This document shows positions 1 to 48,095 of a stretch of 64,000 bases of DNA, in pieces; position 1 is the stretch's first letter, and the number at the start of each line of letters is the position of its first letter. Origin of the DNA: Xestospongia muta. Lineage: Eukaryota > Porifera > Demospongiae > Haplosclerida > Petrosiidae. The stretch is from the NCBI GenBank assembly GCA_963693285.1, contig OY848920.1:4291135-4355134 (forward strand), given 5' to 3'. A model generated the notes under the pieces. It was not told the origin of the DNA, did not search any database, and saw nothing but the letters and a program-made list of their open reading frames with translations. A program made the translations under genes and the position numbers.

Positions 1-1231
1 ATGCAAGTCTACCAACAAGAGCAAAAGTCCACTGTGCGCGAGTCTACCATGTGAATAGATGTCTAACCCTTTGTCAGAAGACATGAATGATGTGTTTCAG
101 AAATGGTGTAAGTCTACCATTCTACTTTTCGTAAGAGTCTATCATTCTACTTTTTGTAAGAGTCTACCATTCTACTTTTCGTAAGAGTCTACCTTCATTC
201 ATTCTACCTTTCGTAAGAGTCTACCTTCATTCAACCTCTACCTTCTACTTTTAAGAGTCTACCTTCATTCAACCTCTACCACCCGTAAGAAGTCTACCTA
301 CCACCCGTAAGAGTCTACCTTCATTCAACCTCTACCATCCGTAAGAGTCCACTCCCAGCAGAGTCTACCTTCATTCAACCTCTACCACCCGTAAGAGTCC
401 ACTCCCAGCAGAGTCTACCTTCATTCAACCTCTACCACCTGTAAGAGTCCACTCCCAGCAGAGTCTACCTTCATTCAACCTATACCACCCATAAGAGTCC
501 ACTCCCAGCAGAGTCTACCTTCAACCTCTACCACCCATTAAGAGTCCACTCCCAGCAGTCCCAATTCAACCTCTACCACCCGTAAGCGTCCACTCCCAGC
601 AGTCCCATTCAACCTCTACCACCCGTAAGAGTCCACACTCTCAGCAGTCCCATTCAACCTCTACCACCCGAAAGAGTCCACGCTCCCAGCAGTCCCATTC
701 AACTTCTACCACCCGTAAGAGTCCACACTCCCAGCAGTCCCAGTCCACTCCCAGCAGTCCCATTCAACCACTCCCACCCGTAAGAGTCCACACTCCCAGC
801 AGTCCCATTCAACCACTCCCACCTGTAAGAGTCCACTCCCAGCAGTCCCATTCAACCACTCCCACCTGTAAGAGTCCACTCCCAGCAGTCCCATTCAACC
901 ACTCCCACCCGTAAGAGTCCACACTCCCAGCAGTCCCATTCAACCACTCCCACCCGTAAGAGTCCACACTCCCAGCAGTCCCATTCAACCACTCCCACCT
1001 GTAATCCACAACCAGCAGTCCCATTCAACCACTCCCACCTGTAAGAGTCCACTCCCACCAGTCCCATTCAACCACTCCCACCTGTAAGAGTCCACTCCCA
1101 CCAGTCCCATTCCAACCACTCCCAGCAAGAGTCCACTCCCACCAGTCCCATTCCAACCACTCCCAGCAAGAGTCCACTCCCACCAGTCCCATTCCAACCA
1201 CTCCCAGCAAGAGTCCACTCCCAGCAGTCCC
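1..1231. repeat. Nested minisatellite, 43-50 bp units
   Basis: The stretch is a graded tandem array. Up to about 300 the units are short and irregular, around the motif GTAAGAGTCTACC. From about 300 to 540 the unit is about 50 bp and combines GTAAGAGTCCACTCCCAGCA with a TTCATTCAACCTCTACCACC part. From about 700 to 1230 the unit is 43-45 bp, with CAGTCCCATTCAACCACTCC in place of the older segment. Later units are internal rearrangements of earlier ones. Open frames through this region exist only because the unit lacks stops. Confidence 0.9.
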
Positions 1232-2067
1232 AGAACCGATGGAGGTTGAGGTCGAACCGATGGAGGTCGAGGTCGAACCGATGGAGGTCGAGGTCGAACC
1301 GATGGAGGTCGAGGTCGAACCGATGGAGGTCGAGGTCGAACCGATGGAGGTCGAGGTCCACTCCCAGCAGTCCCAGAACCGATGGAGGTTGAGGTCGAAC
1401 CGATGGAGGTGGAGGTCGAACCGATGGAGGTGGAGGTCGAACCGATGGAGGTGGAGGTCGAACCGATGGAGGTCGAGGTCGAACCGATGGAGGTCGAGGT
1501 CGAACCGATGGAGGTCGAGGTCGAACCGATGGAGGTCGAGGTCGAACCGATGGAGGTCGAGGTCGAACCGATGGAGGTCGAGGTCGAACCGATGGAGGTC
1601 GAGGTCGAACCGATGGAGGTCGAGGTCGAACCGATGGAGGTCGAGGTCGAACCGATGGAGGTCGAGGTCGAACCGATGGAGGTCGAGGTCGAACCGATGG
1701 AGGTGGAGGTCGAACCGATGGAGGTGGAGGTCGAACCCATGGAGGTGGAGGTCGAACCCATGGAGGTGGAGGTCGAACCCATGGAGGTGGAGGTCGAACC
1801 CATGGAGGTGGAGGTCGAACCCATGGAGGTGGAGGTCGAACCCATGGAGGTGGAGGTCGAACCCATGGAGGTGGAGGTCGAACCCATGGAGGTGGAGGTC
1901 GAACCCATGGAGGTGGAGGTCGAACCCATGGAGGTGGAGGTCGAACCGATGGAGGTCGAACCGATGGAGGTCGAACCGATGGAGGTCGAACCGATGGAGG
2001 TGGAGGTCGAACCGACGGAGGCAGAGGTGGAGGTCGAACCCGAACCGATGGAGGCGGAGGTCGAACC
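1232..2067. repeat. 21-bp minisatellite (MEVEVEP-coding in one frame)
   Basis: About 39 copies of a 21-bp unit, ATGGAGGTCGAGGTCGAACC plus G, run almost without interruption. Variants form blocks: the GTCGAGGTC type, then GTGGAGGTC, then the same with CATGG in place of GATGG (about 1735-1940), and finally 15-bp shortened units (about 1940-1995). Because 21 is a multiple of 3, all frames stay open on both strands; one plus frame reads MEVEVEP repeatedly. There is no flanking non-repeat coding sequence, splice signal or initiation context, so I treat it as a satellite and not a gene. Confidence 0.92.
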
Positions 2068-2260
2068 GTAATATATTTTTATTTTCAGTATAATAGATAT
2101 ATGTGTTAGGGTTCATTTGTTCCTCTGTTAAAGTATAATAGACAGTATTTTCAGGTGTTAGGGTTCATTATCAGGGATATTGTGTAGGAGAAGTAATTAC
2201 GAGTGGGTGGTTAGAATGTCAGCAAACTACCCAACTCCACCCCTCTGCAATTCCACTTGA

Positions 2261-3537: not shown

Positions 3538-3765
3538 TTTACAGTATCCTCATCACTAACGTTTTCAAATAATCTTCATATTTCTTTACAACATTACTCT
3601 GTCTTATAGCTATTAAAGAATTAACCAATTTTCTTCTAGTTGGTTGTACTTTCATCTTTTTCACCTAATCCAAATTGATACATACGTGTCAATTCAGTAT
3701 ATCCAGCTATATAGATCTACACTCTTCAATTCTAACTGTACGTGTCCTCAATAGAAACCACTTTG
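3538..3765 (-). pseudogene. Death-domain exon relic
   Basis: On the minus strand the segment reads as a degenerate DD of the same subtype as the last DD of the two intact genes. It ends in TRRKLVNSLIAIRQSNVVKK and YEDYLKTL, against TRRNLLDALKVIRQSNVARK and YKDYLKTT at 5.3 kb. At least three stops fall in the preceding half. The surrounding 3400-3870 closely matches 61258-61700, so relic and flanks were copied as one block. Confidence 0.75.
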
Positions 3766-4023
3766 TAGTTCTAGTATAAGTAATAATTACTGAATTTGTA
3801 AAAGTTGGTTCAAGAAGCAAAAGCATACAGACCAAAATCGTACACTTCTGTATTCTGTTACGCCCACTCGAATAGTTAATTATAAAATAACATAAAAGTA
3901 TACTTGCATGTTAAAACAAACAATAGCAAAATGTACTGAAAAAGAAGTATACATATACAATTAGTTAACAACTGATCTAACAATAAGTCTGTTATTAACA
4001 GAGCATTTACAAAAATCTCTCTT

Positions 4024-7000
4024 CTAGGATATTGAGGTATGTATCTGTGGAATTAATTGATAACAATTATATACAGTAACTACAGAATATATCTAACTAC
4101 CAATATAACAACTATACATATTATTTAATCTAACAAGAACTATTGTACATGTATTTGAATTGCCTTTTCCAAAGAGACAATCATTAAACAAGAAAGTATT
4201 GTCCACAATTTATCAGGTTAATTATTCCCATTTGTTCAATAGAACAAACTTTACATGAACATATCCACATGCCATGTACATACTTTTATTAAGGTAACTA
4301 GTATACTTACTATATTGTACTTGTTGATATACATAACATCACTTATATAGATTGAACACTCTCATTATTTCCTACCTACAAAAATGAGGAAATGAGTTTG
4401 TAATACAGTGGAGTCTCATAAAACGAATTCCAGGGGACTTTCCAATATAGTTCTTTTTTATAGGAGTTTCTATTAAACAAACCAATGAAAATTATTATAA
4501 CACATCATCCTGCCTTAAATATGTTCATAGTATATAAAACACTGTATACACATACTCAAGTTTAAAAGTAATCCTAGAGCATGTGCCTTAACATTGATCA
4601 AAATCTACCTCATCTTGCTGTTTGAAAAGGACGAGAACAGTTTATCTTTCACTTATACATTTGCTATATCTGATTTACGTTTACTTCCAGCCTCAAAAGC
4701 TTCAAAAATGGAAATCTTAGTGGGTAAATCTACGGCTCAATGCTTAGTTATACTTGCTACTTAGTCTAGAACACATATTAATGAAACAGTAGCACATGAG
4801 CTACTGAAGTAACTAAAATTTGCTCTTTTGAAGCAGAATTTCATTTTAATTGTGTTCATATTAAGCAGTGAAAATTTATAGTGTCTATGGTGGTTCTGCA
4901 GGGATCACAAGTAATTATTCATTTTAACCAGAATTTACTATGTTTTTTAATGATACACCACTGTAGTTATTTGTGGTTACAAATTGTTTACATAATTATA
5001 ATTAGGAAATGAGTTATAATAACAATTGCAATTTGTGGTCACAAATTTTTATATAGTTATAAAACCAATTTCATATAGATAGTATGGGAGTATTAAATCT
5101 AAAACAATCAAGTTATGATTAGTGTTAAATTTTAATATAGATCATTGTCAGATAATAATATTGGACTATTCTTAACTAAGGGGTCCACTCTATGTACATG
5201 TATATATTGATATATGGACAATGTAACTTACTGTTGTTTTTAGATAATCTTTATACTTTCTTGCTACATTACTCTGTCGAATAACTTTTAAAGCATCTAA
5301 TAAATTCCTTCTTGTTGCATTTTTGTCTTTCTCTTCAATCCATAACTGATACATACTGGTATAATCATGACAATTCTCTAGATCCACTTTGTCCAGCTCT
5401 AGTATCACACCCAACTGATTCCATTTTGCAGTTCTAGCATGTTCAAGTAATTCTTGAATAGTAGGTTGTTGATCCAGGTAGTGATCCAGTGATATATTAC
5501 CTATATATGAATTAGATGAAATAATTATTTTAATATTGTGTAGTGTTGTAATGTAATTTTGACATTGCACTTTTTCACTGTTAAGCAATATCAAAGGATG
5601 TTGTCATGATCATTGATAAATACATCATTAATCAATACATGTAAATATTACATGTACTACTTTCTAAAGTTGGCTTTAAACTAAAAGAGATTTAATCCTT
5701 TGTAAATTATGTAATACAATTGAATTCAAATACTTACTGGAGGTTGTAATACTTTTCCTTTTTGATGGTGGCATTTTCTTTACTTGATTGGGTCGTTTAT
5801 GACCTGTACAAAAAGAATAACATGACATACTAAATTCTAAATTGAACACTAGTAAATACAAACTACTACTACTATTATTTCTGTTAAATGTTAAATGTAA
5901 GTTGCATTTGTAACAAAGTTAAAAACAATGTTAGCAAAGTTAAATACAACAATCAAGTTAATAAAATATACACAGAAATTGATCAAAACTATTGTATTCC
6001 ACTATTTCTCTCTTGTCCACCTAATGTTACAAGCAAATGAATAAATTAGTAAAGTATCTTTATTACATGTCACTAAATCAGACTATACCTTTTTGTTTAT
6101 GTGGTAATCTTTTAGGTAATGAAGATATCTTTTTGTGAGGCATTCCTTTTTTCTTATAAGGTCTCCCACTAGCAGGATCTTTACCACATCTACTTGAAGT
6201 GTCATATGACTCTACATCACTGTCAGATGATAAGGTATGAGATTTTTGCTTCCTAGGAGGTATATCTTCATCAGACTCTGATAAATTTAATCTCAGCTTC
6301 TTCTTTTTCTCTCCTGTAATCAATTGAAGAAACCTTACTGTTACAGTAGTTAGAAGTCAACATAGCATCAATATTTTTTCTTCTTAGTTGTACAATGTAC
6401 ATTAGCTTGTATACCTGACAATCTTTGTAAAGCTTACATTAGGAAGTACATTCTCAGTCACTGTTTAGGATACTTTAATGCAGGCATGTATAAATTAATT
6501 GTCTACTTCATCATATTAATAATAATGGTTAAGATTTCAAAATATGACCACAAGCTATTTTTAATGCTGTACCAGTGTTAGAATGGAATTTGCAAACTCT
6601 TCCTCTTTAGTGAGGCTAAGGGCTCCCTGCTGTTAGTTATTTCTTAAATGACACATGCTATTATGTGCTATGTAGTCCAAATATTATGTTATAAGCCTTG
6701 ACAATACTTAGATGTAGTGTTTAAAAATCCTGTATCATTATTATAACTGAGATTGAAAGCAATATATTAAGTGTCACATGTACTACCATGTAAGATTGGC
6801 TTTGATATGAAACACATCTGGTTCAAATCATGTCTAATATAATTAAATTCAATTACTGACTTGAAGAAGCAGTATATTCCCTTTTTGATGGTGGCAGTTC
6901 CTTTGTTTGGTTGGTTTGTTTATAATCTATATAAAACAAACAATGTGAGAAACTAATGTATCACATTAAACTAGTTAATATCAATTATCAATACTATGAT

Positions 7001-10000
7001 TTGTTTTAAAAGTTAAATATTATAGTTTTAACAGAGATAAAAACATCATTAACATGTTATACAATGATCAAGTTAATACAGTGTACACAGAAATTGATTA
7101 TAACTATTGTCTACCACTATTTCTCTCTTGCCTACCTAACATGACAATGAATCAGGTAAAGCATCTTCATTACATGTCAGTAAAACAAACTATACCTTTA
7201 TATTCTTGTGGTATTCTTTTAGGTAATGAATGAGTCATTTTGTGAGATATTCCTTTCTTTTTGTAAAGTCTCCCACTAGCTGGTTCCTTACCATGTCCAC
7301 TTGAAACATCATATGATTCTAAGTCACTATCAGATGAAACATAATGAGATCTTTGTTTACTAAGAGGTATGTCTTCAGACTCTGATTGAACAGGATGCAG
7401 GTCTTCTAATCTCAGTCCCTTCTGTTTCTTTCCTGAAATAAAGTATATAAATAATAATTGTTTGGACTTAATAGTTTTAACATAACATAATGTTTGTACT
7501 ATACAAGACAGTACATAGTATCATTTCATTGAGTTGATGCTTTATCAATAATTCAAATATCTATGATATCACTTGCTTAAAGTAACATTATCAGTATATT
7601 TTGGTATAATACCTAAAGTAAACCAGGAATCTATTATTAAAAAACACAAAAGGGGAAAAAGATGAAGTCCAGGTACACAATATATGTATTCTGCCTTAGA
7701 TTGAGAGTCTAACTGGCACAATTGATTGCTTGTGATTTGGCACTTGGTAATCATCATGAGTTAAATAATATTATTAATGATATTATGAGGAATGCTCAGA
7801 ATAAGGTTATTGCTACAATACTAAAAATAATTGTTAAAATACAATACTAAGTACTGTACTTGAAGTCATATGATCTGGTGTAGGATGACGATCCATTAAC
7901 TCATTTTCCTTAATAAGATCCTGAGCAAAAGGAGAGCTCAACAGCTTCTCACGATACTTTTGTTCTTCCACTTCGTATTGTTGAATAATTTTAATGGCAT
8001 CAGAGAGATTAAAGTGATCACCAATGAGTATTAGAACTTCTATGTTAACTGGAGAGCAAAACTTACGAACTACAACAAAAACACTTGAAAAGGTTTTTGC
8101 TTCTTGTATCATACTTTCAAATTGTTGGTAAGACAGGATAAGTAGCTGCTTCAGTTCATCAATATCGATATTAGCTGATTCAACTATTTTTTGAATTTTA
8201 AGCACCAGAGAACCCAACTTTCCTTGCATTATCAACAAATCACTATATTCACTTTCACCAAGTGCATGTGGCAATGTCTGAATAATGATAAGAAAAATAG
8301 TATCTGTGATTGTTCACCATTACTACTGTGCTTACTTTTAAATATTGATGATCTGTAGACTGATTCATGGGTGACATCCCTTGTGAGATCTCTGTAGGAA
8401 AAGTTGTCATTGAGGAATGTAACATAAATTATAATGACCATATTATTATATGCAAAGTTGACATTGTTGGTGTTTTACCTGTTATCATCTTTTCAGCAAT
8501 AGCACTGACTTGTGGGCCATGACGTTGTATCACTGAGATAATTTTTGTAAGGTTAGTAGGGTCAGTAGCTACTCTAGTCATTAATTCATTTAGAATATGA
8601 TAATTCCTTGCTTTTTGGTTGCTACTGTCGCTATTAATTTTCTGACAAGTTATATCTGAGATGAGTTCAGAAACAGACAAGTCAGTAGCTAATGCAACTG
8701 GATCAGTAATTGCATCAGTCAAATCACCAATGTACTTCTGTAACACCCGCAATTCCTTAGAACAAGGTTTATAGCTGACCTAAATGATTTAACCATTTCA
8801 TTTTTATTAGATTTATATTCGCAGTAACTATATACTACAGATTGTAAGCTACTTACTTCTTTATGTTGTTATGAATGAATGTTATACTTGTGCAATAGAA
8901 TAATTTACATAATGTAATATTAAAAACTAGAGTGTTTAGAGAGGGTATGTAGTGTTGTGTTTCACATGTTAAGACTGCATGCTAATAAATGTTAGGTCAG
9001 ACATCCACAAATTGAAGAATATAGTACATGATTTACTTTTATAAACTAACCATTGTTCTCCAATATTTTACAATATCATCAGCAACTTTATTCAACTTTA
9101 TGGTTCTCAGAGTATTTATCAAATTTCTCCTTGTAGCACCATCACCTTTCTCTTGAAGCCATATTTGATACATCCTGTCGTAGCCATTGCATTCACTTAG
9201 TCTCACAGCATCTAATCCTAACTTTATACCTAATTCATTCCATTCTGCTGTTCTAGCATGAGTAATCAGTTCATCTATGTCTGGACTGCCATCCAAGATA
9301 TAGTCTGGTATGGTACTTTCAGCCATTTTACCTGTTTAATAAAAAGAAATGAAGTCAATCATTAAACACTCCAATAAATGAGTGGTTGCTTACAGAAACA
9401 AATCTATTTAACATTCACGAATAAAATATATTATTGTCATAGCTACTGCATGATATGAGGAAGTGTACACATATCAATGTTCTTGTAATAATTAAACTCA
9501 CATGGACATGGGACAAAATCATGATAAGAACACCAACAAGTGTACATTCTCATAGATAACAAACGGTATATGATGTTTATATGTAATGTAGTATTGTGCA
9601 TATTAATATATACAATATAAAATACACTGAGCGTTGTTTAAAAGCAATTATAACTGTTATATGTATTATTCTGCATTATAAATATGTGTGAATGAGTGGA
9701 GAGGTTTTTTTCGTTTCTTATTTTAAGTAGACGGACAGCAAACTATATCTATTAAACCAAATTAATTAAAAAATTAAATAAATATGATTTAATAAATTAA
9801 TTCATTCCATTTTGTACAGACAATTAAAAATGTACAGTACTATTTTTCAACATAGTTGTAAATTATGTACATGTATCCTATATTGTATTGTGGACTTTAT
9901 TCATTACAGCACTATCTGCATAATAAATGTGGTTTTTTTATCAAGGTTACTATGAATTGATCCTATTGGTTTTATCACATACCAGTTTTTCTTACACATG

Positions 10001-13000
10001 TATTAGCACAATGAACTGAAAATTATAAATGAGGAAAGTGCCTATAGGTCTGGCTAGAAGGAAGTCGTACTTTGTCGTTTAGGGTTTAGGGGATGGCAAT
10101 TATTTTATTACACAAGAAAGTATGGACTTCTTGCTACACCTAGAGGTACTATTAATGAAATAGTGTTTGCCATGCTGCTCTAGTTATAAATACATCCACT
10201 AATATTAATAAAAACATAATGTGTGTAATCACAAAACGGCAATCCAGTATACTTTCCTATATAACAGAGATGAAATTATAGTTAAATACAGACTTGACTG
10301 AACATAAATTAGACATTGAATCTTCCAATAGATGACGTAATCTTAAAAGTTACTGCAGGTAAACCTAATTGTATTACATTACTTGTGCAACTGCACAAGT
10401 TGATATTAAAAAAGTATAGCAGAGCCTTTTCCTCTAAGCAAGTATCACTAACTAATAAGGTGGGAAGCGATTAAGAGCTGTTAATTCAGTGTTTAAATCA
10501 AACAGAATATTATATCTTAAAAAAAAACATTGACAACTTAAAAAGTATTTTCAAAAATATTTTCTAAATTACGTTCGTGTACAAACAGTTGTTACCAGGT
10601 GGTCCTTCCCTTTACTGAACTCTAAAATAGGACATCCAAAGAAAACTTACAGAATGCTACTGTATATTTAGCTAACGTGTGTAACTCTTTATATATAGTC
10701 AGACAAATTGTTAAACAAATTAGTAAACAAATCTATAATTTACAAGATTATAATTACAAAACTCATCCTATGAAAGGCACTAAAGTGCCGAACCTCGCTG
10801 CAGTTTCTACCTTATTTATAAATGCTATGTCAGCTTAGGCCCAGCTATGATGTTGCTAGGTAGCATTGCAAGAAAATGTATTAACATTCTAGAAGGTGTG
10901 GTCACATTTATCAATATTTCATATACAAAATTTATTGTAATTGAAGATGAAACGTTCTTTGGAAACGTCCCGTAGTACAAATATAAATCGATATATTATC
11001 TATTAGTAGCAGTTTTTTCAGTGCTTTGAGACGTTTTCTGAATGCGTTACTTCGCTCCAAGTCCATGTATAATCTTGAAAACACTTTTCAGAACTTTTAT
11101 GACGATTGCTTCGACCAACGGCCTTCTGTCTTGCTGATGAGTATTCCTTTAAGATTGCCTACAACACACTAAAAAATCTCCACATTATGGTTTTTACTTT
11201 TTGAGAAACGGCACATTGACCTCTGCAGCCTGAAAATTTTTTTGAGAGTTTTAAGCTTTCCTTTTCCCTGACGATGTTCTCGATATTAATGTTGTAAAGT
11301 ACACACGTTTTTCTATTCATTGCTAAACGTTGGTAGCTGCTAACGCTTCGTTTGCCAAGTTATAGCAGTTCAAAAACAATCCCCAGTAACAGACAGTGCA
11401 GACACACACACACTGACAGACTACAGTACCCTCGCTATGCACCCACGCACACGAGGTTAAAATTGTTTAATAGTTGTGTTGTTGATGTAAGCTAGCGACA
11501 TTTTCATTTGATTGAATCCATTGTATGGTCAATGAAGATGTATTTTAACTATAACAGTAATTGAAAGTTAAACAGATAAGGAATACTATCAAGTCAATGC
11601 ATTGGTATGGTATGTTCTATGTGTGTACATGCAATACATGATATGATATCATTTAGTGAGTGCTAGACACATCCAAAACACAATACAAGCCCATTCTAAA
11701 TACAAGTACTACATACTACATGTATGCTAAAACTCATTGAAAACGTAATTACAAAAATAATCTTAAACATTTTCCACTATACAGCATATTGACAGTAATA
11801 TTAGGTGTGTTCATATTTAATTCATTTCAATGTGCTTTACATCTACAAACTTACTTAATTCCATTCAAAAAGAATTGTTAACATTAACCACTTTTAAAGA
11901 ATTCTTACATTAATTAAAAATGGCTTCTCAGATACAGGAAGTTGGTGACACTTAGATTGCTTGTTATTAAAAATTTCATTTTTCCTTACTAAAACAAAAG
12001 CTTCTAATTTTAAAGGTAAAATAACTATAGTGCTAAAAAAAGTTTGACTATTAAGTTTACCATGATTCATACATATGATAACAAGGTTATACATTTATGT
12101 GAAAGTCAGAGCAAGGTTTTCGTCATGACATTCACGTGATTGCCTACAAACTGATAACAATTATACATAACCTATACAAAACATTCCTGTCTTCAATAAT
12201 AACTGATGCAATCAACATTAAACATATCTGAAGTGGATTGAGAGTAATTTGATTTTTCAATAACTGAATTGAATACACTTTACAGTAGTAGTCTGAACAC
12301 CACTATTAATAACCTTATTACTTAAAATTAATATCTTATTACTCTTACCTGTACTAAGATATTGACGTATTAGATCAGCTGTCTCCTTGTCATTAACAAT
12401 AGGACCCTCAATAGCAGTTATCACAGTTTCCCAGGTAACAGGAGATGGTTCAGTAGTTAGAAAATTGTCAATGACTGCCAAGAGTTTATCATCCCTCTCA
12501 CTTTGTATTAAATCATCCAAAACATTACAACGTACTTGTAATGATAATCCAATATCATACCATTTGTCACTAATATTAAATAATACACTATTTAGTTCAT
12601 ATTTTGTAGGAATCTCCTTTAATATACTGGTAATATCTGAGATAACAATAAAATAATTATTATAACAAACTGTCATTTTATAAATTAATTAACGTCTTAA
12701 AAATTATAATTTAAATGTATATATATGTGGTATTAATTAAGTGTTGACAAATTAAAACTTCAATTATCAATAAATGGACATGTAATTTAATACAAGAACT
12801 TGGAATATAAAATTGTAATTATATTTATACAATTAACTAGGACATCTACATGTACTACTATTCTTCTACTGTTAATAACATTTACTGTTTATCATTCAAT
12901 CACTTCACTCACACAGATCTAATAAATTTACTACTTATAATACAATGGTTTGTAATTGGGCTATAAATAGAATATGTGGTATGTGTAAACAAATACTAAA

Positions 13001-13705
13001 CAAAGTGGACATTGAACACATTAGGGTGGGGCTAATTATTAACTAGTAATAAATGGACAGTTATCTTTGTTACTATCTACAATTATAATGAACATTTATC
13101 TGCTGCAAATATATTCTTTCAGTACTACATCATATAGCTTTTGTGTTGTATTTAACATAAAGGAGATATGATAGATTCGTTGAACTAACTTCTTGCATAC
13201 TCAATTCAAATTATAGTTTGTATAATTACAAGCAAGAATAACAATACCTACATGAGTATTTAAAATAATTAATGAGCTGATTTCATCAACTGTTGTCAAC
13301 TGAGCTGACACTAATTAAGTTACATCATAGTTTGATGAGCTATTATTGTTTATGTAATTATCAACTATTATTGACAAGAGTAGTGTCAGATTATGTTTTA
13401 TAAACTATAATTCTAGAGTAAACTTTAACTATAATAAATGCAATCAAACTCAGAGGATGTTTTTTAATAGTAGGGTTACCTGTTTTAGGTCCAGGATTGA
13501 GTTCAACATCTCCTGATAAAATAAGGAGAAGTGAGAGAAAGACTCCTAAAGAGAAAGTAAGATCTTTAATCTTCCTGATAATAGTCACTCCATCTATCCT
13601 ACTACTGCTCTCAGTGTTTGGAATCTCTTTAGAACGAGTACTACATGATATCTGATGACATGCCCACAATCCAATACTCACTCTCCATTGAGTGACATCA
13701 ATCAT
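4024..13705 (-). CDS. 2A-peptide / death-domain / CARD-like protein, 12 exons, 817 aa
   Basis: Exons on the minus strand: 13705-13480, 12636-12349, 9331-9051, 8779-8479, 8391-8336, 8277-7860, 7432-7196, 6926-6861, 6313-6089, 5803-5738, 5500-5232, 4044-4024. All introns are GT-AG, all phases agree, and the sum is 818 codons with no internal stop. Residues 1-73 end in a hydrophobic run and a canonical 2A peptide (GDVELNPGP). Residues about 76-171 are a DD (WYDIGLSL, VTWETVITAIEGP) and about 173-265 a second DD (THARTAEWNELGIKLGL). About 266-365 is CARD-like, and about 386-525 a helical domain also seen at 22 kb. Two pairs of Lys/Ser/Asp-rich exons follow (SSDSD, KKKG), then a third DD and the tail IHTSIS. 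DDs and CARDs are assembly domains of cell-death and immune signalling; that role here is inferred. The start is uncertain, because a good acceptor (ending TTATAG) lies just before the ATG and the exon may continue upstream. Confidence 0.8.
5640..7440. repeat. Tandem duplication of a two-exon unit
   Basis: About 5640-6330 and 6770-7440 are diverged direct copies, each holding one long exon (225 and 237 nt) and one 66-nt exon of the gene above, plus introns. Corresponding protein pieces are SSDSDVESYDTSSRCGKDPA versus SSDSDLESYDVSSGHGKEPA, and KMPPSKRKS versus ELPPSKREY. All four exons enter and leave in phase 1, so the duplication kept the reading frame. Confidence 0.85.
10590..13110. repeat. 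Death-domain exon block, copy 1
   Basis: This stretch of intron plus the DD exon 12349-12636 is paralogous to 40790-43330 and to 44780-48095. Shared landmarks are the CCCTTTACTGAACTCTAAA segment near 10605, TTTGATTGAATC near 11508, the DD exon, and the AGGACATCTACATGTAC segment near 12838. Copy 1 carries a transposon at 10771-11459 that is absent from the block at 40.8 kb. Confidence 0.8.
10771..11459 (+). mobile_element. TIR element with AACCTCGCTG ends, copy 1
   Basis: One of three copies in the window (others 56453-57335 and 60099-60940). The main ends are AACCTCGCTG and CGAGGTT, preceded by a small palindrome GGCACTAAAGTGCC that belongs to the element, since copy 3 has it too. Copy 1 has internal deletions relative to copy 2. 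The uninterrupted paralogous intron near 40975-41000 shows what the site looked like before insertion. I found no transposase-like reading frame, so it is non-autonomous. Confidence 0.8.
13487..13540 (-). other. 2A ribosome-skipping peptide
   Basis: The codons read FLSLLLILSGDVELNPGP, containing the full D-V-E-x-N-P-G-P consensus preceded by a hydrophobic run. In established 2A peptides the ribosome fails to join the last Gly and Pro, releasing the upstream peptide and continuing with Pro; in some echinoderm and sponge proteins the N-terminal 2A doubles as a signal sequence. The splice donor lies seven bases after the last Pro codon, and splicing in matching phase joins it to a DD exon. Skipping is therefore predicted to give a cytoplasmic DD/CARD protein starting with Pro, while failure to skip would keep the hydrophobic N-terminus attached. 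Confidence 0.85.
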
Positions 13706-21125: not shown

Positions 21126-24100
21126 ATGGCAGCAAATCGTTGTGAATTGAGTGAGTTGAAGTTAGCACGCAAAGTTCAATCTATTTTTCTTTTAATTGTT
21201 TAGATGTTAGTGATCTAAAAGATATCATAGAAGCTTTGAAACAAAGCTATTTCCCAAATCACAGATGGTTTCCTTTTGGGTCTACAATTGAGTCTTTTGC
21301 ATCCTATGCTGGCAGAGATCGAGGCAAACCACAAAAATGATGTAGGGCGATGTCTTCAATAGTGTTTAACTCTGTGGTTAAGTAAAGCCAACAAGGTTAC
21401 TGAAAGTGGAGGTCCTACATGGGACTCATTAGTTGGTGCTCTTAACAAGATAGGTGAAAATGCAACAGCTGAAAAGGTGAAGGAATACAGTAAGTATATA
21501 CTTATAGTACAAGTTATCTGTCTTATTCTTTTAAAAATAGAAGAGTTGTCCACTCCAGCTTGTCAAATGTTACATAGACAAACTGACAACCTTTCATCTC
21601 TTACTCTTCCTGTGGAGATTGTTCAGATGTTATATACAGAGAGAGTGATTTCTAAGGAGACATTAGATGAAGTGAATAGATTGGGAGGTGTACTGAGAGA
21701 AGGTCCATTGAAAGCACTGTGTACTACAGTGTATGAAGATCCTAGCAAATTAAGTGTTTTTGCAAGTGTCTTATTGAAATCTGAAGAAACAGTCCTGCTT
21801 GCACAAGATCTACTCAAGGAGTACAGTAAGCAAATTTACAATAAATTTGAATATTATTTTTTTATAGACCAAACATTTCCTTCCCAAATCAATCTTCATC
21901 GAACATATCAATATGATTTTGATCAGATGAAAGTTACATTTGAAAATCTTATTGTGAAAGTTTCTCCTCTCATTTAAAAAGCTGTTCCTTCATTAGAAGA
22001 GCTCAAGATATATCTTCGAAAATGTTTCAGAGAGCTAAGACCTCAATTATCTACGTCTAAATCATTTGATGATGTTATGGAAATTGTAGAAGATAAATGT
22101 ACCATTATCAACATTTGTTGCCTGGATGCTATTGTTAATCACTACAATATCACTGAAGCTAAACAACACATTGAAGAATTCAAAGCAGAAGTTGATAGTT
22201 TTTGTCAGAAATTGAAAGCTGATGTTTGCTGTGACCAGAACTTTAAAGTATGTTCATCTTCCATCATCTCATCTGTGAAAGTATTGAGTTTGTTCTGGAT
22301 TATGAGGCTGACAAATACACTCTTAGTCACATCAAAGATTTGCTTTCAAAAGCTTTCAAGGGTATGGCAAAATTTGTCCAAGTTAAAGCCATAAAGGAAG
22401 GCTATTCTATTATGGTTACCTGTTATGCTCCACAATATATGATGGACAGTCTACTGATGACAGCAGAGGAGAATTTTAACCTATTGAAAGAAATGGGAGT
22501 TATCAAACTTACTATCAGCTACCACATCATTTATGATAAACGTAAAAGAGATGAGGTAAAAAATAAGTAGTACATTAGACAAAGGATATTATAATTAGTA
22601 CTATCATTGTAGGAGATGAAAGCTCTTGAAGAAGAGAAACAAAGAGATGTAGAGGATTTGAAACACAAACTAGATGCACAAGACACTGTTATTGAAGAGA
22701 CAACAAGAGAAATGAATAAATTGAAATCAAGACTAAAAAGCACTGAAGGTTAATAGTATGGATTGTTGTTGACTATAGGGCATAAGTCAATTTAGGAAGA
22801 TCTCCTATAATATATATTATAATATTTTCATCTTATATGCAATGCCAATGTACATTTGTGTAATAATCTTTTCTTTATAGGTCTTGAAGAAGAGTTACAG
22901 ACACTCAAGAAGAAGATACTAGAAATGTCTAGTGTGACAGAAAGTAAAGGTAAGCTCTTAACAACATATGTTGTGTACTATTTTGTTCTCTCTTGTATGT
23001 AGAGTCTGAATTAAAACAATTGTTAGAAGCAAGTACTAAAATGAACAGAGCAAAAATTATTCAGATAGAACAGTTAACAAATACCATCAAGAAAAAGGAA
23101 GATAAGTTACTAAAGATAGTATACTGTTATAAAAAATGTCTTCAGCTTTTGAAAAGGAGGTATTGTCAGTATCTACAGAGAAACAAAGAGAGATAGAGAC
23201 ACTACAGGAGATAATCACATCATTGACTTTACAATTAGGTGAGAGAGACAAATAGATTGAAGAATTGAAACAAAGTTTAAAAGGTAAGTAAATAATTGTC
23301 ACTTTTTATCCTATGACATTGTCACTAGCTTTAGCAGTCATTTCAAAGATTTAGAAACCAATTACAGATCAAAATATTAGGAACACCCAAACTAATACTA
23401 GTCAAGAAGAGTCCACACTATCTTCCAGTGAATATAAAGGTATTGTAACGAATATTAATTATATATTGTATGTACTCTTGTAGAGTAATCTATTTCAGAG
23501 ATAAAAGATCAATTTAAAAACTTAGTTGGTGAAAGAGAGTCAGATCGTGACATGTTTCCTACTCAAGGTGCAGTTTCAAAGTTAATTTTTTTCAATATTT
23601 CTCTCTTTTGCTAGTTGAGACATCAGAGAAAGCTTATAAGCGTCTAACTAAAGTAGTGTCAAGTTACACAGCGGCAAATGAAGAGGAGTTATCACTGACA
23701 TTAGGTGATATTGTAGAAGTTTTGGGAGATGATGAAAAGGGCTGGTGTCGTGGATGAATTTTCACCATATCTATGTATGTATGTGTATATTGTTATATTT
23801 CACAGTATGCATTACTAGTTATTAACTCTATAGGAGACATTGGAGGTGTTAAGCGGAATGATTATGACAACAGCGTCTATCTCACTTCTCCAACAATAGA
23901 ACAATGTGAAAATGTTATGAGTAGATTAATGGAAAACAAAAGTACAGGACAAGAATGGAGTGTTTATCTGTCTACATCAACTCCTGAAAGTACTCTAGCT
24001 ATTATTAACAATCTCAACTTGTGTGGAGTGTGGAGACTTGATATATTACGTACCCCACTGGACAGCAAGTGTGTATCCACATTGTCAGAAATACTGATGA

Positions 24101-24656
24101 ACAATAAACAGTGAGAATCTTACATTTTGTCTCCTCTCAACTTACTGGTGGTATCAAACAAGTCAGTGATGCTCTTTTTACTAACACAACACTTCAAGAA
24201 TTATGGTTGTTTAATGTTTCCATCACAGATGAACATACTACTCACTTGTCTAATATGTTGAGTAGTAATAAGACATTGAACGTACTACAACTCTCCAACT
24301 GTAACATCACTGATAATGGTGTCCAATATATCTGTGAAGGACTTACTAGAAACCAAACACTGATTACATTGAACATTGGAGGTAATTATCAGATCACTTC
24401 AGCCAGTACCAGTACAATAGTTAAATTGATAAACGCTGCAAAATCATTGACAGAACTCCACCTGGACCATACTTCACTGAAAGATGATGACATGAAGATA
24501 ATATGTACTGAACTAGCTATCAATACTACAATACAGAGACTTGTATTAACACCACAAAATAAGGAGAACCCAGGATGCACTAGGTATCAAGAACATAGTA
24601 TTAAGCGGTACGTATGCACTGTGTTCCAAAATGAACCCCTGAATGAACTATCTTAG
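21126..24656 (+). pseudogene. DD / CARD / unknown domain / coiled coil / SH3 / LRR protein, decayed
   Basis: In order: a DD (21126-21472; NVSDLKDIIEALKQSY, CLTLWLSKANKV, WDSLVGALNKIG), a CARD-like domain (21533-21824; TLPVEIVQMLYTERVIS), and a conserved helical domain (about 21900-22570; SFDDVMEIVEDKCTIINICC). Then come coiled-coil exons (22612-23280), an SH3 start (about 23640-23757; SYTAANEEELSLTLGDIVEV then GWCRG), and ribonuclease-inhibitor-type LRRs (about 23833-24570; LQLSNCNITDNGVQYICEGL). Breaks are a frameshift near 21281, TAG at 21360, TAA at 21975, frameshifts near 22248 and 23130, TAG at 23253, TGA at 23755 within the SH3, and a missing base near 24110. Exon junctions are otherwise clean. 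The last 30 residues come from a satellite-like repeat. DD/CARD plus LRR is an architecture of intracellular sensors; that role is inferred. Confidence 0.78.
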
Positions 24657-33274: not shown

Positions 33275-36200
33275 CTAGGATATTGAGGTATGTATCTGTG
33301 GAATTAACAAATAATAATTATGTACAGTATTATACAATATATCTAACTATCAATATATGGCTATTATGTAAATAGTTAAAATGTCAAATTTTCCTGCACT
33401 AGTCACTATTATTAGACACAAGCTTGAGCAACAAGACTGACTGTGAGTGAGGGATAACTAAATTATAGTTTGTTGTTTAGGTTCACCTTGTACTACACAA
33501 ATCTTAATAACAACAAGTAGCCTATGAGTAACAAAAGTCTAAGATGGTATGAAGGTTTTAGTAGAAGACTGTTATAGAAGCAGCAACAGAGACAAAATAC
33601 ACATAAGCCTGTAGTACAGATATCTGATATAAACATACATCCAAATCCATCAATTAAAATAATCAGTGTGGGAGACACTTTAATTATTTGTGTACGAGGT
33701 TCACATTTTCCTCTTCTTTGTCTTTTCTATAATCATGGACTTAGTCCTATATATGTAGTGGAACTATCTTGTCTAAAGGTACAATCTTTCAATCCAAAGC
33801 ATTGGCAACAAATCACTCAATAGTTCAATTGAACTATCATTTACATGTATACATGAACATATTACTATATTGTACTTGTTGATATATATAACATCACTTA
33901 TATAGATTGAACACTCTCATTATTTCTCACCTACAGATTTGAGGAAATGAGTTTGTAATACCAATTTGTGGTCACAAGCTATTTATATAGTCTATACTGT
34001 TATAATTTATATGAAACCCACAACTATATACATAATATACATATCAGTATATAAAGTATAGGCCAATGACAGGGAACTATTTCTTAGCTAAGGGGTCCAC
34101 TCCATTAATTATATATACACATTGATGTATACATATTGTAACTTACCATTGTCATCAGATAATCTTCATAAATTCTTGCTACATTGTTCTGTTTGATAGC
34201 TCTTAAAGCATCTAACAAACTCCTTCTTGTTGCTTTATCAGCTTTCTCTTGAATCCATAACTGATACATACTGGTTAAGCTATGACATTCAGCTAGATTG
34301 ACACTGTCCAGTTGTAATTGTGTACCCAATTCATTCCACTTTTCAGTTCTAGCATGTGTAGCTAATTCTAGAATTGTAGGTTGTTGATCCAAGAGTTGAT
34401 CCAGTGACATCTTACTATGTCCTATATGAAGTAGATTAATTACACAATAAATAATATTATAAAATCAATTTATTGTTATTCACTTTTCATTGTTTGTTAA
34501 GCAAAAGTCAACACATTATATTAACGACCACATTATGTGCAAGTGAAATCACATCTAATTTATTGTTTGATCAAAGAAATCTGAATTGATAATACTTATA
34601 GCACTGTATTTGCTGGTTATTAAGCGCATGTGCTTGTATCTCCACAGGAAGAAAATATGGGCTTAATAAGGATATGAATTAACAAATAGCTTGTGGATGA
34701 TGTCACTTTTCTGGGTGTGGCTCTCACTTGAGCATGTGGAGGATATGACTGGTGTTTCTATTGAGCTCTCAATTGACAGCGTAATTCAAGGTCATCACAT
34801 TTACAAAAAAGTATGAACAACTTCAGTTGGAGAGGTTCTTCTATTTGTGAAAGAGGAAGCAAATGAACACGACCATTTTACTATATCTGTGATGAAGGAC
34901 GGATTCATTGTTGGTCATGAATATTGCTTATTAATAATTCATCAATCGCTTAATAAAAAAGAGTTCTGACAAATGTGTGCACTTAACAAACAGTATGCAC
35001 GTAATAACCATATGCACCTAACAACCAGCAAATACAGTAGGCTTTGAAAGTAGTTGATTCTAAACAACAAAGGTGGAGCTTGTGTGTTGATATTGTTAGG
35101 ACAGGATACATAATGTACAAACTCATGTACATAGTATAGTATTATAACAAACTTTGAGTGACAGGTGGTCTTAATTAATGCTATTTAGATGGTAAGTATT
35201 TCTTAAATCACTCTTAAATAGATATTGATAAATGTGTTCACATGTGCCATCATATTATGTCTGATAATAACTAAAACAAAGTCTCGTTTTCATATTTTTC
35301 ATTTAAAAGCAATTACATAAGCAGAGCAACAACAAGCTTTCCAATAATAGCTTTGTCAGTTTTGAAGTCACTACCATGTCATGTCTGACTCCTCAGAATG
35401 TTGATTAATGTAACAATTAATGTACTGTAATACAAATGTGCTTTATATAGAATAAGTTACACTACAGGTTAACAAAGTAGAAGAAATGTTCATTGACATA
35501 CCAACTAGTTTAGGATCTTGACTAGCAGGATAAGGAGGTGAAGGTAGTGTAGCTATAGAATAAATAAGGATAATAATTAGAGAAAAAAAGTACAATATTA
35601 CAATATAAACAAGTAACTAGTAATGATATAATACGGGTGCTTCTTGGTGTAACTTGACTGATGATGTAACAACATGTCCTATGATGACATCACTATGTGT
35701 CATAGAGTTAATAATGTTAAGTTTGGTTTAGGGTTTAGGTGATGTCATCAATATTATGACATCATTATGTATCATTTCATTATGATGTCATCATAGTCAA
35801 GTTACACCAAGAACCACCCTATAATACTAACATAATACAAAGCTATTTTTAAAACATCTAGTACCTGATTTTTTAATGTACTATAATGTCAATATAGTAT
35901 CAGTATGTTGTTATATGAACATATATTCAAAAATTAAATTGAATGATTTGTTTGTATAATTCCAAGATTGTCCACTGTGTAAGTATTTTAAAGTAAAATT
36001 ATTGTTATTCACTTTTCATTGTTTCTTAACTAAAATCTCATCACATTATCATTGACAACCACATCATGTAAAAGTGAAAAGATATCTAATTTATTCTTTA
36101 ATCTAGCTATAACAACAAATTTAAATTGCTATTTAAAACATGTTTTGAATTACTGATGTTGCCTTAAAATAAAATTAACTTGAAACAAACAAAGTAATGA

Positions 36201-39200
36201 CTAAGACACACCTCCTGTTTATTATCAATTTAATATGACCAATAATGTAAAGGCAATATTTTTAATGAACCCACACATCAAACAATAATACTATATATTA
36301 GACTACTTTAAACTCACCCTCCACAGAGAACCAAGGTAGTTGACAAGATTCATTGATACAGGCAGTTGTATGGTTGTCACAACAGGAAACTGTTTTCCGA
36401 TCATCATCTACATAACAGAAATGTTCTGGAGATTCATTGGAACATATCTTACAATAAAAATATTCCTCAAGATTTTTAAAGTTAGCCATACATTGAAAAT
36501 TGCTGACAACTTTGTGGATGCCAGAATGGACAGCTTCACGTAAAACACAGCATCTTTTTAATGGGTCAGTACTGTATATTGCCATCCAGTAAAGCTCATC
36601 AACTAAGAGAATGTCACCATAATCAGTACGTAAAGTAATAGCATTACGATAACGTGGAGTGGAACGTAAAGGACGTCTAAGTTGAAACTTTGGTGAATGA
36701 TTATGATGTAAAAGGTTAACAACTAATGCAGGAAAGACACCTCGAGGAAGAGGCTTCATATCCCAAGAGAGAATTAGAGGGTCAGTGTATTTCTTGAATG
36801 GATCAGGTATAGATTTATATTCTGTAAAGGAGGTGGTAGTAGGAAGGACAGTTGGTAGAAAGTATTTTCCTTTCTCAGGTAGAGAGGCTATTATAAATAA
36901 ACTTGTCATTAACTTGAGAAAATCTTGTGGTGTAAACTCAGGATAGAATCCTTGTGATAAATGTGAATTGGGTGATGTTAACAAGTCTTCTTTAAATGTT
37001 CCTTCACATTTTAGTTCTCTATGGGCAGCAGGATTGTATAGAGAGATACCTCCTTCTTCCAAATGATCAACAGCATCAGCAAAAGAGATACTGATTAAAT
37101 CAGAGAGCCTCTCAAATAATGGTTGAGGATGAAGAAATGCTATATTAGGTAAGATTTTAGGGAAATAGAGAAAGATGGTCAAATCATGGTAGTACATCAA
37201 TGCTGCATGGACTTCTCTAGGGTTCATTTCTAAGGTCATACCAATTTCTAAACACTTAGACACAGCTACAATGCTAGATTTCGTAGATTTATGAAGCTGA
37301 TCTAATTCAAGTTGAAACAAAAACCATCGAATAGGGATTTCTGCCTCAAGAAAATATTGGCAGATTTTCTTACGAATCCTAGCAGCCAAATTTATCTCAT
37401 AATCATTTCTGGAAGTAGTATTGACAGGAAATATTACTTCATTTCCAGCTTTACGATACATAATTGTGGCTTCACTAAATTTTTCTAAAACTGTTGAGAG
37501 AATAGCATTTTTGGTTTTGAGAGACTCGCCAGACTTCAGCATTTTATCCAAGAATGTCCCTAGTACTATGTAGTAGGGTTCTTGAACGTGTTTGATCTGG
37601 ATGTTTGGTAACTCTGGAAAATGTACTGAAAATACTGAACGAAATGATGATTCAATAAGTTGCAAATTTGTAATCTGTTTTTCTACTGGCTCACCAATTT
37701 GCTTTCCCATAATACTGAAGAAGAACTTGGCTTTGTCGTTAAGCTTTTCGTTTAATTTGTGTATAAGAATATTGACAGAGTGATATCGTAACAAAATCGG
37801 AGCAATGTCTAAAAAGGCAGCCTGACCACCAGTATCAACACCATATATCCAATGAGATTGATAAAGCTCTTCAGATTTCTGTGCATGTGGTAAAAGCTTA
37901 ATAATTTCCTGAGTTACAGTAGGTTTAGAAAAAGAAGAGCTCTGATCAACTGTTTGATGACCAGCTATAGTTGATGATTCAAAATCATCACTGTCTGATG
38001 TTTCTTCTGTTGAGTGATCAACTGATTCCTCTAATGACTCTTTTGGTTTGTGAGGTCGGACACTATGTTTAACTCCTTGAGCAATTATTGCTTTAAGAGA
38101 CTCATGGTCTATTTTTCTCCACATAGAATCATCACCTATAGTCGCAGATATGATCCTTGGTTCTTTTGCTGCAATTACTGGAGTACTGCTATGGCAATGT
38201 GTAGGATCCTCGTTATAAAGCAGGTTTAAAAAGGACGACTTGCCAGTTCCAGGTGCACCTGAGACAGAAAACTTGGACCATTTAGCAGTGACGAAGCCCT
38301 CCTTCATAGCTTTGTCCAGTAACTTCTTGTTAGCACCTAATATATAATAGAAATAAAATTAAAACTTTGATTTAAGTAAATAATGTTAACAAGGATTGCA
38401 TAACACATTATAATGATTAGACTTCTAAATGTGGTAGCTATAAATTATAGATATTTTAAATTTCCAATTCAATCCTTTAGTACTAGCTAGAATATAGTCA
38501 GTTCCTATTGTCCAGTTTAACAAGTACAAGTACATAACTCTTTGTGTACATGTACAATAGATAATAGAGTAAAGGAAAGGGATAAGACTTGTGGGTGTGG
38601 TTACAATAGGACATAAATTTATATGGCTACCATAAAAGTGGACACATGTACAGTTGACTGGAATCATAATTTCAGTAATAATTACAAACAATATAGTTAC
38701 AGTAGTAATGTATGTAATGTTTGAACTTTCATTGTTATATATAAAGTTTACAAAAGCTTATACAATAGTGTTCACATTAAGGTGACAAGTGTACTTGGTT
38801 TATATTAATCACTTTTTATTAAATCAGTGGGTGTAATGTTGTGATAATTGTTGTGATAATAAGCCACAAGTATATTGATTAAAAATTTATATAAGCACAG
38901 TAAAGTTATAAGGTCTTGTGGTTAGGAATCACTGAAACAACTTGAAAACCTTCATGTGTTGTCCTAGATATATTGACAAGTGAGTATGAGAAGTAAAAAC
39001 AATTATTTTGAGTATATTATCAGTAATGGTCCTGGTAGAGATACACACTAAACTTTTCTCTAGTGACAATGGTGAGAATCCATACTAGGAATACTTAGTA
39101 TTAAGGGACATATATGCACTGGGCTCCAAAATGATCCCCTGAATAAACCATCCCAGTACATAATAAGTATCAAGGGATACTTGGTATTAATGGTTACATA

Positions 39201-46796: not shown

Positions 46797-48095
46797 CTGA
46801 GACAACAACAAAATAAATATTATAACAAGCTGTCATATTATAAATTAATTAATGTCTTAAATTTATCATTTTAAATATATGTGGTATTGATTAAGTGTTG
46901 ACAAATGAAAACTTCAATTATCAATAAATGGACATGGAATTTAATACAGAAACTTAGAATATAAAATTTTAATTATATTTATACAATTAACTAGGACATC
47001 TACATGTACTACTATTCTTCTACTGTTAATAACATTTACTGTTTATCATTCAATGACTTCACTCACACTAATCTAACAAATTTACTACTTATAATACAAT
47101 GGTTTGTGATTGGGCTTTAAATAGAATATGTGGTATGTCAAACAAATACTATACTCTGTCCAAGTTGAGAAGAGCTCCTCATTAAAAAAGGTGTTTTATG
47201 CATGGAATGTAAGGTGAGGTATTTCCTCACTTATTATATGCATTTAGTACTGAAGTACATTTTAATGTTACTCATTATTTGGTCACATGGATGTCATGTG
47301 AACACACCATGTTTTCAATCATGTTTGTTAAGATGCCAAAGCAAAGAGACAGACGTCACAAACAAAGGAGGTTGTTACAAATGTCTATGACTATTTTGAG
47401 AAAACTCAACAGGTGTAAACAGACTCAAGGATCTCATAAACAAACATCTGATGCCACAGGAGTTTCACGTAACAGTATCAAGAGGTTATGAAAAGAGAAA
47501 GTTCTAGGCATTGTCAGCCTTCCTTCTTTGTAAAAAGGTTTTTTCAGAACCACGGTGGCTTTATAGCTGCCTTAAATCATAAAAGACAATACCTGATTAC
47601 CATTTTAATAATAATAATTGTTATAATAGAACATCTGTTCATATAATTATAACTGTAATTTTGAATTGCCATGTGACACATGGCTGACTTCTCAAGGTGA
47701 AAAGTGTTATTTGTTAAATCCTCAAAGGCACATAATTTACAGTATGACGAAGGTATGCCATTAAAAATGCATGAAGTTTTATAGTTTGCTACTTTCTCAT
47801 AGCACTAGAGAGCCACATTTTATATATAAAAGCATGTTTGCAAGCTGAATCCATTATTGAAAGTCCTCTGTAGATAGCACTTAAAACATCAAAGTTATTT
47901 ACATGTCTGAGTGGCCCAACTCAACTTGGACAGAGTATAAATAAAGTAGACATTGAACACATTAGGGTGGGGCTAATTATTAACTAGTAATACATGAACA
48001 GTTATCTTTGTTACTGTCTACAATTATAATGATCATTTACCTGCTGCCATTTTCATGTAAATATACTCTCTCAGTACTACTTCACAGTGTAGTCA
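44780..48095. repeat. Death-domain exon block, copy 3, with insertions
   Basis: This matches 11500-13110 and 41020-43330, including DD exon 46509-46796 and the distal segment CATTGAACACATTAGGGTGG at 47951, which pairs with 13013. It is interrupted at about 45000-45540, 45700-46100 and 47154-47935. Confidence 0.8.
47154..47935 (+). mobile_element. Deleted Tc1/mariner-like transposon, 782 bp
   Basis: Sixteen-base perfect inverted ends (CTCTGTCCAAGTTGAG) are flanked on each side by TATA, so the target duplication is TA or TATA. The paralogous empty site near 13000 lacks the element. Inside, the plus strand encodes a basic segment and a helix-turn-helix-like piece (QRDRRHKQRRLLQM, then TSDATGVSRNSIKRL), resembling the DNA-binding N-terminus of an IS630/Tc1/mariner-type transposase. 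The catalytic domain is missing, so it cannot move by itself. Confidence 0.85.

What the first reader, a model, noticed from the sequence alone, without database searches (positions are those of the whole stretch)
13480..13705. Canonical 2A recoding peptide at the front of a death-domain/CARD-like protein
The exon ends in a hydrophobic run plus GDVELNPGP and is joined in phase to a DD exon. Outside viruses and some retroelements, cellular 2A peptides are rare. They have been described as dual-targeting N-terminal signals in sea-urchin NLR-like proteins and in sponges. A 2A in front of DD, DD, CARD, unknown domain and DD would couple translation skipping to the location of a death-fold signalling protein.
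Basis: partly seen in the sequence, partly recalled or inferred. Interest (0 to 1): 0.88.

Follow-up and report, generated by a model that had tools for sequence, protein, structure and literature searches.

The report
2A leader exon on sponge immune genes
A short first exon ending in a virus-like "ribosome skipping" peptide occurs in at least 150 places in this sponge-like genome, many of them at the front of immune-type receptor genes, so these animals may cut their receptors free from a membrane-seeking leader while they are being made.

Summary
Window 13480..13705 (minus) is a 226-nt exon encoding a 73-residue leader with a hydrophobic stretch and GDVELNPGP, joined in phase to a death-fold exon at 12636. 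It is not alone: 150 matches to this leader lie in the same 158-Mb genome (19 with stops inside). Sixty-three have a Death-domain exon within 250 bp downstream, and 43 have a NACHT exon next, so many head NOD-like receptors (NLRs). The window gene carries death-domain exons; some close relatives also have a long P-loop, possibly ROC/COR, exon. The core is intact in 79 of 85 open copies but 2 of 9 stop-bearing ones, and pN/pS there is about 0.1. Best reading: a StopGo leader that releases cytosolic receptors beginning with Pro, with an unskipped fraction directed to membranes. N-terminal 2A on NLRs is known from sea urchin; this leader differs in layout and heads several gene classes. Its N-terminal motif MIDxxQWRxSIGLWxCHQ is also conserved although too far from the core to act in the ribosome tunnel, so the released leader may itself be a product. 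Skipping, transcripts and location are untested.

The parts
13480..13705 (-). Exon 1, 2A leader exon: 73 residues up to the final Pro of the 2A, then KT; ends in phase 1
13649..13705 (-). Conserved N-terminal motif (residues 1-19, MIDxxQWRxSIGLWxCHQI)
   Evidence: pN/pS 0.34-0.35 for residues 2-19
13511..13561 (-). Hydrophobic stretch, residues 49-65 (LTFSLGVFLSLLLILSG), mean hydropathy 2.18
13487..13510 (-). 2A/StopGo core DVELNPGP; the skipped bond would lie between codons 13490-13492 (Gly) and 13487-13489 (Pro)
12349..12636 (-). Exon 2, death-fold-like domain, phase 1 at both ends
9051..9331 (-). Exon 3, Death domain (splice sites inferred)
8479..8779 (-).
7834..8313 (-). Open frame of exon 5, unknown domain
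7170..7520 (-). Open frame of exon 6, charged linker, duplicated as exon 7
6078..6356 (-). Open frame of exon 7, charged linker, duplicate of exon 6
5190..5603 (-). Open frame of exon 8, Death domain (residues 48-120 of the frame), followed by a GTAAGT donor-like site

Best explanation
Exon 1 is a StopGo (2A) leader exon shared by a large family of immune-type genes. When the ribosome reaches NPG/P it usually fails to form the Gly-Pro bond. The 72-residue leader, whose hydrophobic stretch then lies next to its new C-terminus, is released. The ribosome goes on to make a receptor that begins with Pro and lacks that stretch, so it is cytosolic. In the fraction that is not skipped the hydrophobic stretch stays internal and would send the death-fold protein or NLR to membranes. 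Shown here: the exon, the frame, the family, its pairing with Death and NACHT exons, and purifying selection on the core. Inferred from work on other 2As: skipping itself, its efficiency and the fate of both products.
For: Canonical core with an L-rich upstream ending in SG; a representative of L-rich motif 6 was active in vitro (PMC12846837, section 10 read). 150 leader matches in the genome (150 of 176 candidates scored). Core pattern intact in 79 of 85 open copies and 2 of 9 with stops, Fisher p 5e-6 (94 of the 150 lie where pattern sites were listed). pN/pS 0.10 in the core against 0.94 in the middle over 38 leaders fetched by leader similarity. The Death exon of L036 type follows 72 of 150 on the same strand, 63 within 250 bp, 54 at 38-56 nt, 0 on the opposite strand (Death list 115 matches, 150 of 294 candidates scored). 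50 of 98 NACHT matches have a same-strand 2A (150 leader matches plus 19 other pattern sites) within 15 kb upstream, 4 on the opposite strand. Leader and Death exon lie in one open frame at L080 and L081. In a protein database 117 of the 120 listed leader matches keep the core. Sea urchin SpNLR2A6: about 80% recoding in vitro; reporter cytosolic, but in the Golgi when the core Pro was mutated (PMC4981915).
Against: No translation assay, transcript or proteomics. Sea urchin leaders are 26 residues and 12 of 14 were predicted signal peptides; here the hydrophobic stretch begins at residue 49. In viruses the L-rich motifs go mostly with Ser at the variable core position; here it is mostly Leu. 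6 of 85 open copies lack the canonical core. For 72 of 150 leaders neither the Death exon used as query nor NACHT was found next; of the 15 closest C4 copies 12 have an exon-2-type death fold downstream, 3 do not at E 1e-3. 48 of 98 NACHT matches have no 2A upstream. No full-length database protein joining leader and NLR was found: the leader query with an 842-residue protein gave 3 weak retroelement hits, and none of the 120 listed NACHT proteins, mostly unspliced open frames, has a 2A.
Confidence: 0.75

Rival explanations
1. The leader is mainly a membrane anchor of membrane-bound receptors, and its 2A-like end is not used or works poorly.
For: Hydrophobic stretch of 17 residues, mean hydropathy 2.18, under purifying selection. 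Transmembrane segments are reported in NLRs of the sponge Dysidea avara and, as cited there, Amphimedon (PMC12909245 section 4.2 read).
Against: A mere anchor does not need D-[VI]-E-x-N-P-G-P, yet this is the most constrained part of the exon (pN/pS 0.10 against 0.37 for the hydrophobic stretch).
Confidence: 0.14
2. A narrower form of the best explanation (odds overlap with it): dual targeting in the strict sea urchin sense. The purpose of the leader is a set ratio of cytosolic to exocytic receptor, and the free leader peptide is a by-product.
For: A sea urchin NLR 2A does this with a reporter in HeLa cells (PMC4981915, abstract and first part of results read); the abstract and introduction extend it to plant cells.
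Against: Residues 2-19 are conserved (pN/pS 0.35) although they lie more than 50 residues from the Gly-Pro bond and are not hydrophobic, which a by-product does not explain.
Confidence: 0.4
3. The exon is a captured or decayed piece of a 2A-bearing retroelement with no function in these genes.
For: Of 19 other 2A sites fetched, 8 look like retroelement 2As (L-rich, then a VKCVC stretch that looks PHD-like by eye).
Against: Those 8 lack the QWR leader motif. The leader has a recurrent splice phase, a short gap of 38-56 nt to the Death exon in 54 copies, and strong constraint that is lost in stop-bearing copies.
Confidence: 0.05

Closest known systems
Sea urchin SpNLR2A leaders (Roulston et al. 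2016, PMC4981915; abstract, first parts of introduction and results read)
   Same: 2A at or near the N-terminus of NLRs, hydrophobic residues just before the core, many copies (85 of 241 NLR proteins as stated there)
   Different: Sea urchin leaders are 26 residues, 12 of 14 predicted signal peptides; here 73 residues with a conserved hydrophilic N-terminal motif, in a separate phase-1 exon, on genes with NACHT, with Death only, and with death-fold arrays
2A of APE-type non-LTR retrotransposons (Odon 2013, not held; known from citation)
   Same: Similar L-rich 2A ends; such sites appear in this genome and in database proteins with reverse transcriptase or endonuclease domains (P0001-P0003)
   Different: Death-fold or NACHT exons follow the leader exon
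Viral StopGo, L-rich motif class (PMC12846837, section 10 and passages read)
   Same: LLxLSG followed by D-[VI]-E-x-N-P-G-P; one L-rich representative active in vitro
   Different: Here cellular, N-terminal, in a multigene family, with Leu rather than Ser at the variable core position
Sponge NLRs (Dysidea avara, PMC12909245; abstract, sections 3.3 and 4.2 and passages read)
   Same: Expanded NACHT genes, some with Death or CARD, and reported transmembrane segments
   Different: No 2A leader in the parts read; the text was searched for signal peptide, transmembrane, N-terminal and first exon, not for 2A (term too short)

Membership tests
2A / StopGo peptides | D-[VI]-E-x-N-P-G-P core | tested here: met
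2A / StopGo peptides | Suitable upstream context, here L-rich ending in SG | tested here: met
   sequence held by eye against the motif classes of PMC12846837
2A / StopGo peptides | Skipping of the Gly-Pro bond in translation | not testable with these tools
   needs in vitro translation
N-terminal 2A leaders of NLRs (sea urchin type) | 2A at the front of NACHT genes | tested here: met
   for the family: 43 of 150 leaders. The window gene itself has none: no NACHT match lies in the window
N-terminal 2A leaders of NLRs (sea urchin type) | Acts as co-translational signal sequence when not skipped | not testable with these tools
   hydrophobic stretch present but only from residue 49
Death-domain proteins | Pfam Death above cut-off | tested here: met
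   frames of exons 3 and 8
Death-domain proteins | Exon 2 is a death fold | tested here: inconclusive
   FADD at E 0.029; 5 of 14 members match Death, not the window's exon 2; models of pLDDT 47.6 and 54.7, Foldseek without a death fold
CARD proteins | CARD domain in exon 4 | tested here: not met
   0 Pfam families up to E 1
2A-bearing non-LTR retrotransposons | Endonuclease or reverse transcriptase frame after the 2A | tested here: not met
   seven frames after the leader frame scanned with Pfam: Death domains, no such enzyme
ROCO (Roc-COR) proteins, for relatives of the window gene | Roc and COR domains | tested here: inconclusive
   COR-A 3.9e-7 in one frame of L037 but under its cut-off; Roc or AAA only weakly elsewhere

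The most novel reading that the evidence does not exclude
The leader is a second gene product. StopGo in a gene family with at least 150 leader copies makes, one for one with each receptor, a 72-residue microprotein whose hydrophobic stretch ends 7 residues from its C-terminus. It would be tail-anchored, showing the conserved MIDxxQWRxSIGLWxCHQ motif to the cytosol, while the receptor starts with Pro in the cytosol. The membrane-bound sponge NLRs proposed in print could then be unskipped precursors, or an artefact of reading through a 2A.
Probability: 0.33. Interest if true: 0.88.

Novelty: new variant of a known kind. Interest (0 to 1): 0.8.

Why it matters
StopGo is described as only rarely used in cellular genes (PMC12846837, passages read), and sea urchin NLRs are the one cellular case that I could read about. 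A sponge-like animal with 150 leader copies, many on NLR and death-domain genes, would make translational recoding a routine part of an animal immune repertoire. Together with sea urchin it would be either an ancient or a twice-invented link between 2A and NLRs. It also gives a direct test of whether membrane-bound sponge NLRs exist, and of why immune receptors would be tied to a released leader peptide.

Tried and rejected
Structure of exon 2: single-sequence model pLDDT 47.6, three-sequence window alignment pLDDT 54.7, Foldseek best E 2.6 with no death fold among 22 rows; not used as evidence.

Leader search with an 842-residue query, scored on residues 1-78, found 3 weak hits, all retroelement proteins. 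A profile of 25 leaders then found 1685 matches at E<=10 among 7988 scored candidates, 120 listed. Those listed are short open frames on unnamed contigs (one is the window's own), so species cannot be told, and the ranking favours the core, so 117 of 120 is not an unbiased rate. Twelve contig lengths recur in the NACHT list, which suggests but does not prove shared contigs.

Leader tree: 59 rows, 53 different, few columns; 34 of 50 inner branches open and the bootstrap not settled. Only the 20-row clade is used.

The first selection run (59 leaders) included loci fetched by the 2A pattern, so it was repeated on 38 of the 40 loci L021-L060. The extraction script still asked for the core; one search shows NPGP in all 40 of those loci, and the two dropped (L057, L060) differ at the start of the leader.

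The splice check (15 of 15 death-fold exons in 11 loci at the same AG) is weaker than it looks: the exons were picked by a protein motif whose first residue after the splice, Asp or Gly, already forces a G, so only the A before it and the pyrimidine-rich stretch are informative.

Retroelement origin was considered. Of 19 further 2A sites, 8 are of retroelement type, 1 is of neither type (L065), 2 are diverged full leaders (L061, L064) and 8 are partial leaders (L069, L070, L073, L074, L075, L077, L078, L079). The string '2A-like' in a sponge paper listed (PMC5890393) proved to be a gene name.

Full report
What is there. On the minus strand, 13480..13705 is a 226-nt exon beginning with ATG at 13705 and ending in phase 1 before a GT at 13479. 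It encodes 73 residues up to the final Pro of a canonical 2A, then KT. The next exon begins after tcag at 12636 and the join keeps the frame. One 2A pattern match exists in the window, and none in any of 100 shuffles. Exon boundaries after exon 2 are inferred from splice signals. A donor-like GTAAGT follows the last Death domain, and a Death-like match broken by a stop lies at 3542-3811, so the gene may go on.

It is a family. A search of the window's own genome (158 Mb, 28 contigs) with the leader gave 150 matches, the cap of scored candidates (176 candidates), worst E 3e-6; 19 of the 150 have stops inside. The 2A DNA pattern occurs 150 times in the genome and 0 times read backwards. These are not the same 150: of the first 100 pattern sites listed, 19 lie outside the leader matches. 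Fetched, 8 of the 19 look like retroelement 2As, 1 is of neither type, 2 are diverged leaders and 8 partial leaders. In the part of the genome covered by the list lie 94 of the 150 leader matches. Of these, 79 of 85 open copies have the core intact, against 2 of 9 copies with stops inside (Fisher p 5e-6). The core is thus mostly lost when the exon is dead, as selection on it predicts.

What the leader is attached to. Of 150 leaders, 72 are followed on the same strand, before the next leader and within 15 kb, by the Death exon type of locus L036: 63 within 250 bp and 54 at a gap of 38-56 nt; none of the 150 has one on the opposite strand. Of 98 NACHT matches (E<=0.01, one under the cut-off), 50 have a same-strand 2A within 15 kb upstream, against 4 on the opposite strand. 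43 of 150 leaders have a NACHT exon next, 37 of them with the Death exon as well; 35 have the Death exon only and 72 neither. Locus L036 reads leader, Death (7.4e-5, over the cut-off), CARD (6.2e-5, half a bit under it), NACHT (1.8e-21): an NLR. At L080 and L081 leader and Death exon lie in one open frame through a 51- or 57-nt intron-like stretch, so there the frame relation does not depend on a splice guess. In the C4 group, to which the window gene belongs, an exon-2-type death fold lies within the fetched 9 kb downstream in 12 of the 15 closest copies. Fifteen such exons in 11 loci begin at the same AG, with the caveat given under Tried and rejected. Five of the 20 loci fetched at 10 kb hold an open P-loop frame of 683-761 residues (L023, L025, L033, L037 with two, L038). 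One matches COR-A at 3.9e-7, under its cut-off; the others match Roc or AAA models weakly or nothing. This points to ROCO-like proteins but is not proven, and the search that would have mapped this exon genome-wide did not complete.

Kinship. In a tree of 59 leaders the window's leader falls in a 20-row clade (support 100/99) with the leaders of L036 and L039, which have Death plus NACHT, and of L037 and L038, which have P-loop frames. One leader type thus heads different gene classes. A profile of 25 leaders found 1685 database proteins at E<=10; the 120 listed are 73-133 residues long, all E below 1e-23, 117 with the core. Of the 120 listed matches to the L036 NACHT exon one is named, from the sponge Amphimedon queenslandica, at 43% identity; another, unnamed, is identical. 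I therefore call the genome sponge-like; no tool names the species. None of those 120 NACHT proteins, the A. queenslandica one included, shows a 2A. Most come from unspliced frames, so the leader exon is not expected in them, but direct proof of a leader-NLR protein in a database is lacking.

Selection along the leader. With 38 leaders fetched by leader similarity, pN/pS is 0.35 for residues 2-19, 0.94 for the middle, 0.37 for the hydrophobic stretch and 0.10 for the core; bootstrap ranges overlap only between the first and third. In the 15 closest C4 copies alone the picture is flatter: 0.64, 0.51, 0.22 and 0.10, so the constraint on the N-terminal block shows between distant copies more than within this young group. 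The N-terminal block lies more than 50 residues from the Gly-Pro bond. The exit tunnel holds some 30-40 residues (recalled), and 2A activity resides in about 25 (PMC11512398, passage seen), so StopGo does not explain that conservation. It argues that the released leader, or the unskipped fusion, has a task of its own.

How it most likely works. The context LLLILSG-DVELNPGP fits the L-rich class of StopGo motifs, of which a motif-6 representative was active in vitro (PMC12846837, section 10). Leu is among the favoured residues at the variable core position overall, though the L-rich viral motifs go mostly with Ser there. In sea urchin a 26-residue 2A leader of an NLR skipped at about 80% in vitro and left the reporter in the cytosol, but sent it to the Golgi when the core Pro was mutated (PMC4981915). 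By analogy most product here should be a cytosolic receptor starting PKT, with a minor fused form for membranes. What differs is the leader: its hydrophobic stretch lies at residues 49-65, so after skipping it ends only 7 residues from the new C-terminus. That is the layout of a tail-anchored protein (established knowledge, not tested here).

Compared with print. N-terminal 2A on NLRs is known from Strongylocentrotus (85 of 241 NLR proteins as stated in PMC4981915). Searches of the held library combining 2A-like, 2A peptide, StopGo or ribosome skipping with sponge, Amphimedon, NLR, death domain, retrotransposon, dual protein targeting, leader peptide and tail-anchored (listings seen) showed me no paper on 2A leaders in sponges. 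Rao 2025, Odon 2013 and the A. queenslandica NLR paper of 2014 could not be read. A paper on Dysidea avara reports transmembrane segments in NLRs and calls them putatively membrane-bound, as first reported in A. queenslandica (PMC12909245). A leader like this one is a possible source of such predictions; this is a suggestion, not a finding.

Verdict. A real, selected and widespread feature, of a known kind in a new variant. Activity, expression and the fate of the leader remain to be measured.

Noticed in passing
window 34105-46848, minus strand: Death-fold-like frames (46384-46848, 42606-43028), a Death domain (34105-34464) and a 686-residue P-loop frame (36301-38358) resembling relatives of the window gene, but no leader there: the next best leader-profile match in the window has E 0.13.
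   Followed up: partly
window 495-2112: GC-rich stretch (first 2 kb 55%, most of the rest 28-35%) that reads as short repeats in several frames; no tandem-repeat program was run.
   Followed up: no
window 5712-7377: A unit of about 1.1 kb holding the charged linker exon is duplicated (stretches 75-84% identical), doubling exons 6 and 7.
   Followed up: no
window 62042-64000, plus strand: Open frame with ANF_receptor (1.6e-72) and 7tm_3 (4.3e-27) domains: a class C G-protein-coupled receptor running off the window.
   Followed up: no
window 21855-22214 and 24108-24656, plus strand: A distant relative of exon 5 (25% identity, 1e-8) and a leucine-rich-repeat frame (LRR_6, 6e-8) about 2 kb apart.
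   Followed up: no
L062, L063, L066, L067, L068, L071, L072, L076: Other 2A sites of the genome with an L-rich 2A followed by a VKCV stretch, PHD-like by eye where long enough (L062, L063, L066, L068), as in non-LTR retroelements, without the QWR leader motif.
   Followed up: partly
L061 and L064: Strongly diverged leaders (WRARIGLFN, QWRARIGSWN); the 2A of L064 lies about 1.6 kb upstream of a NACHT exon.
   Followed up: partly
L029, leader exon: Natural GNVELNPGP variant in an otherwise open copy; also in database protein P0171.
   Followed up: no
G000:C14 about 5.10-5.22 Mb and C12 about 4.00-4.05 Mb: Tandem arrays of leaders, many followed by the Death exon. In the C14 array 8 second copies lie 2.2-2.5 kb from another, and 7 of the 8 have stops at least by the listed matches.
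   Followed up: no
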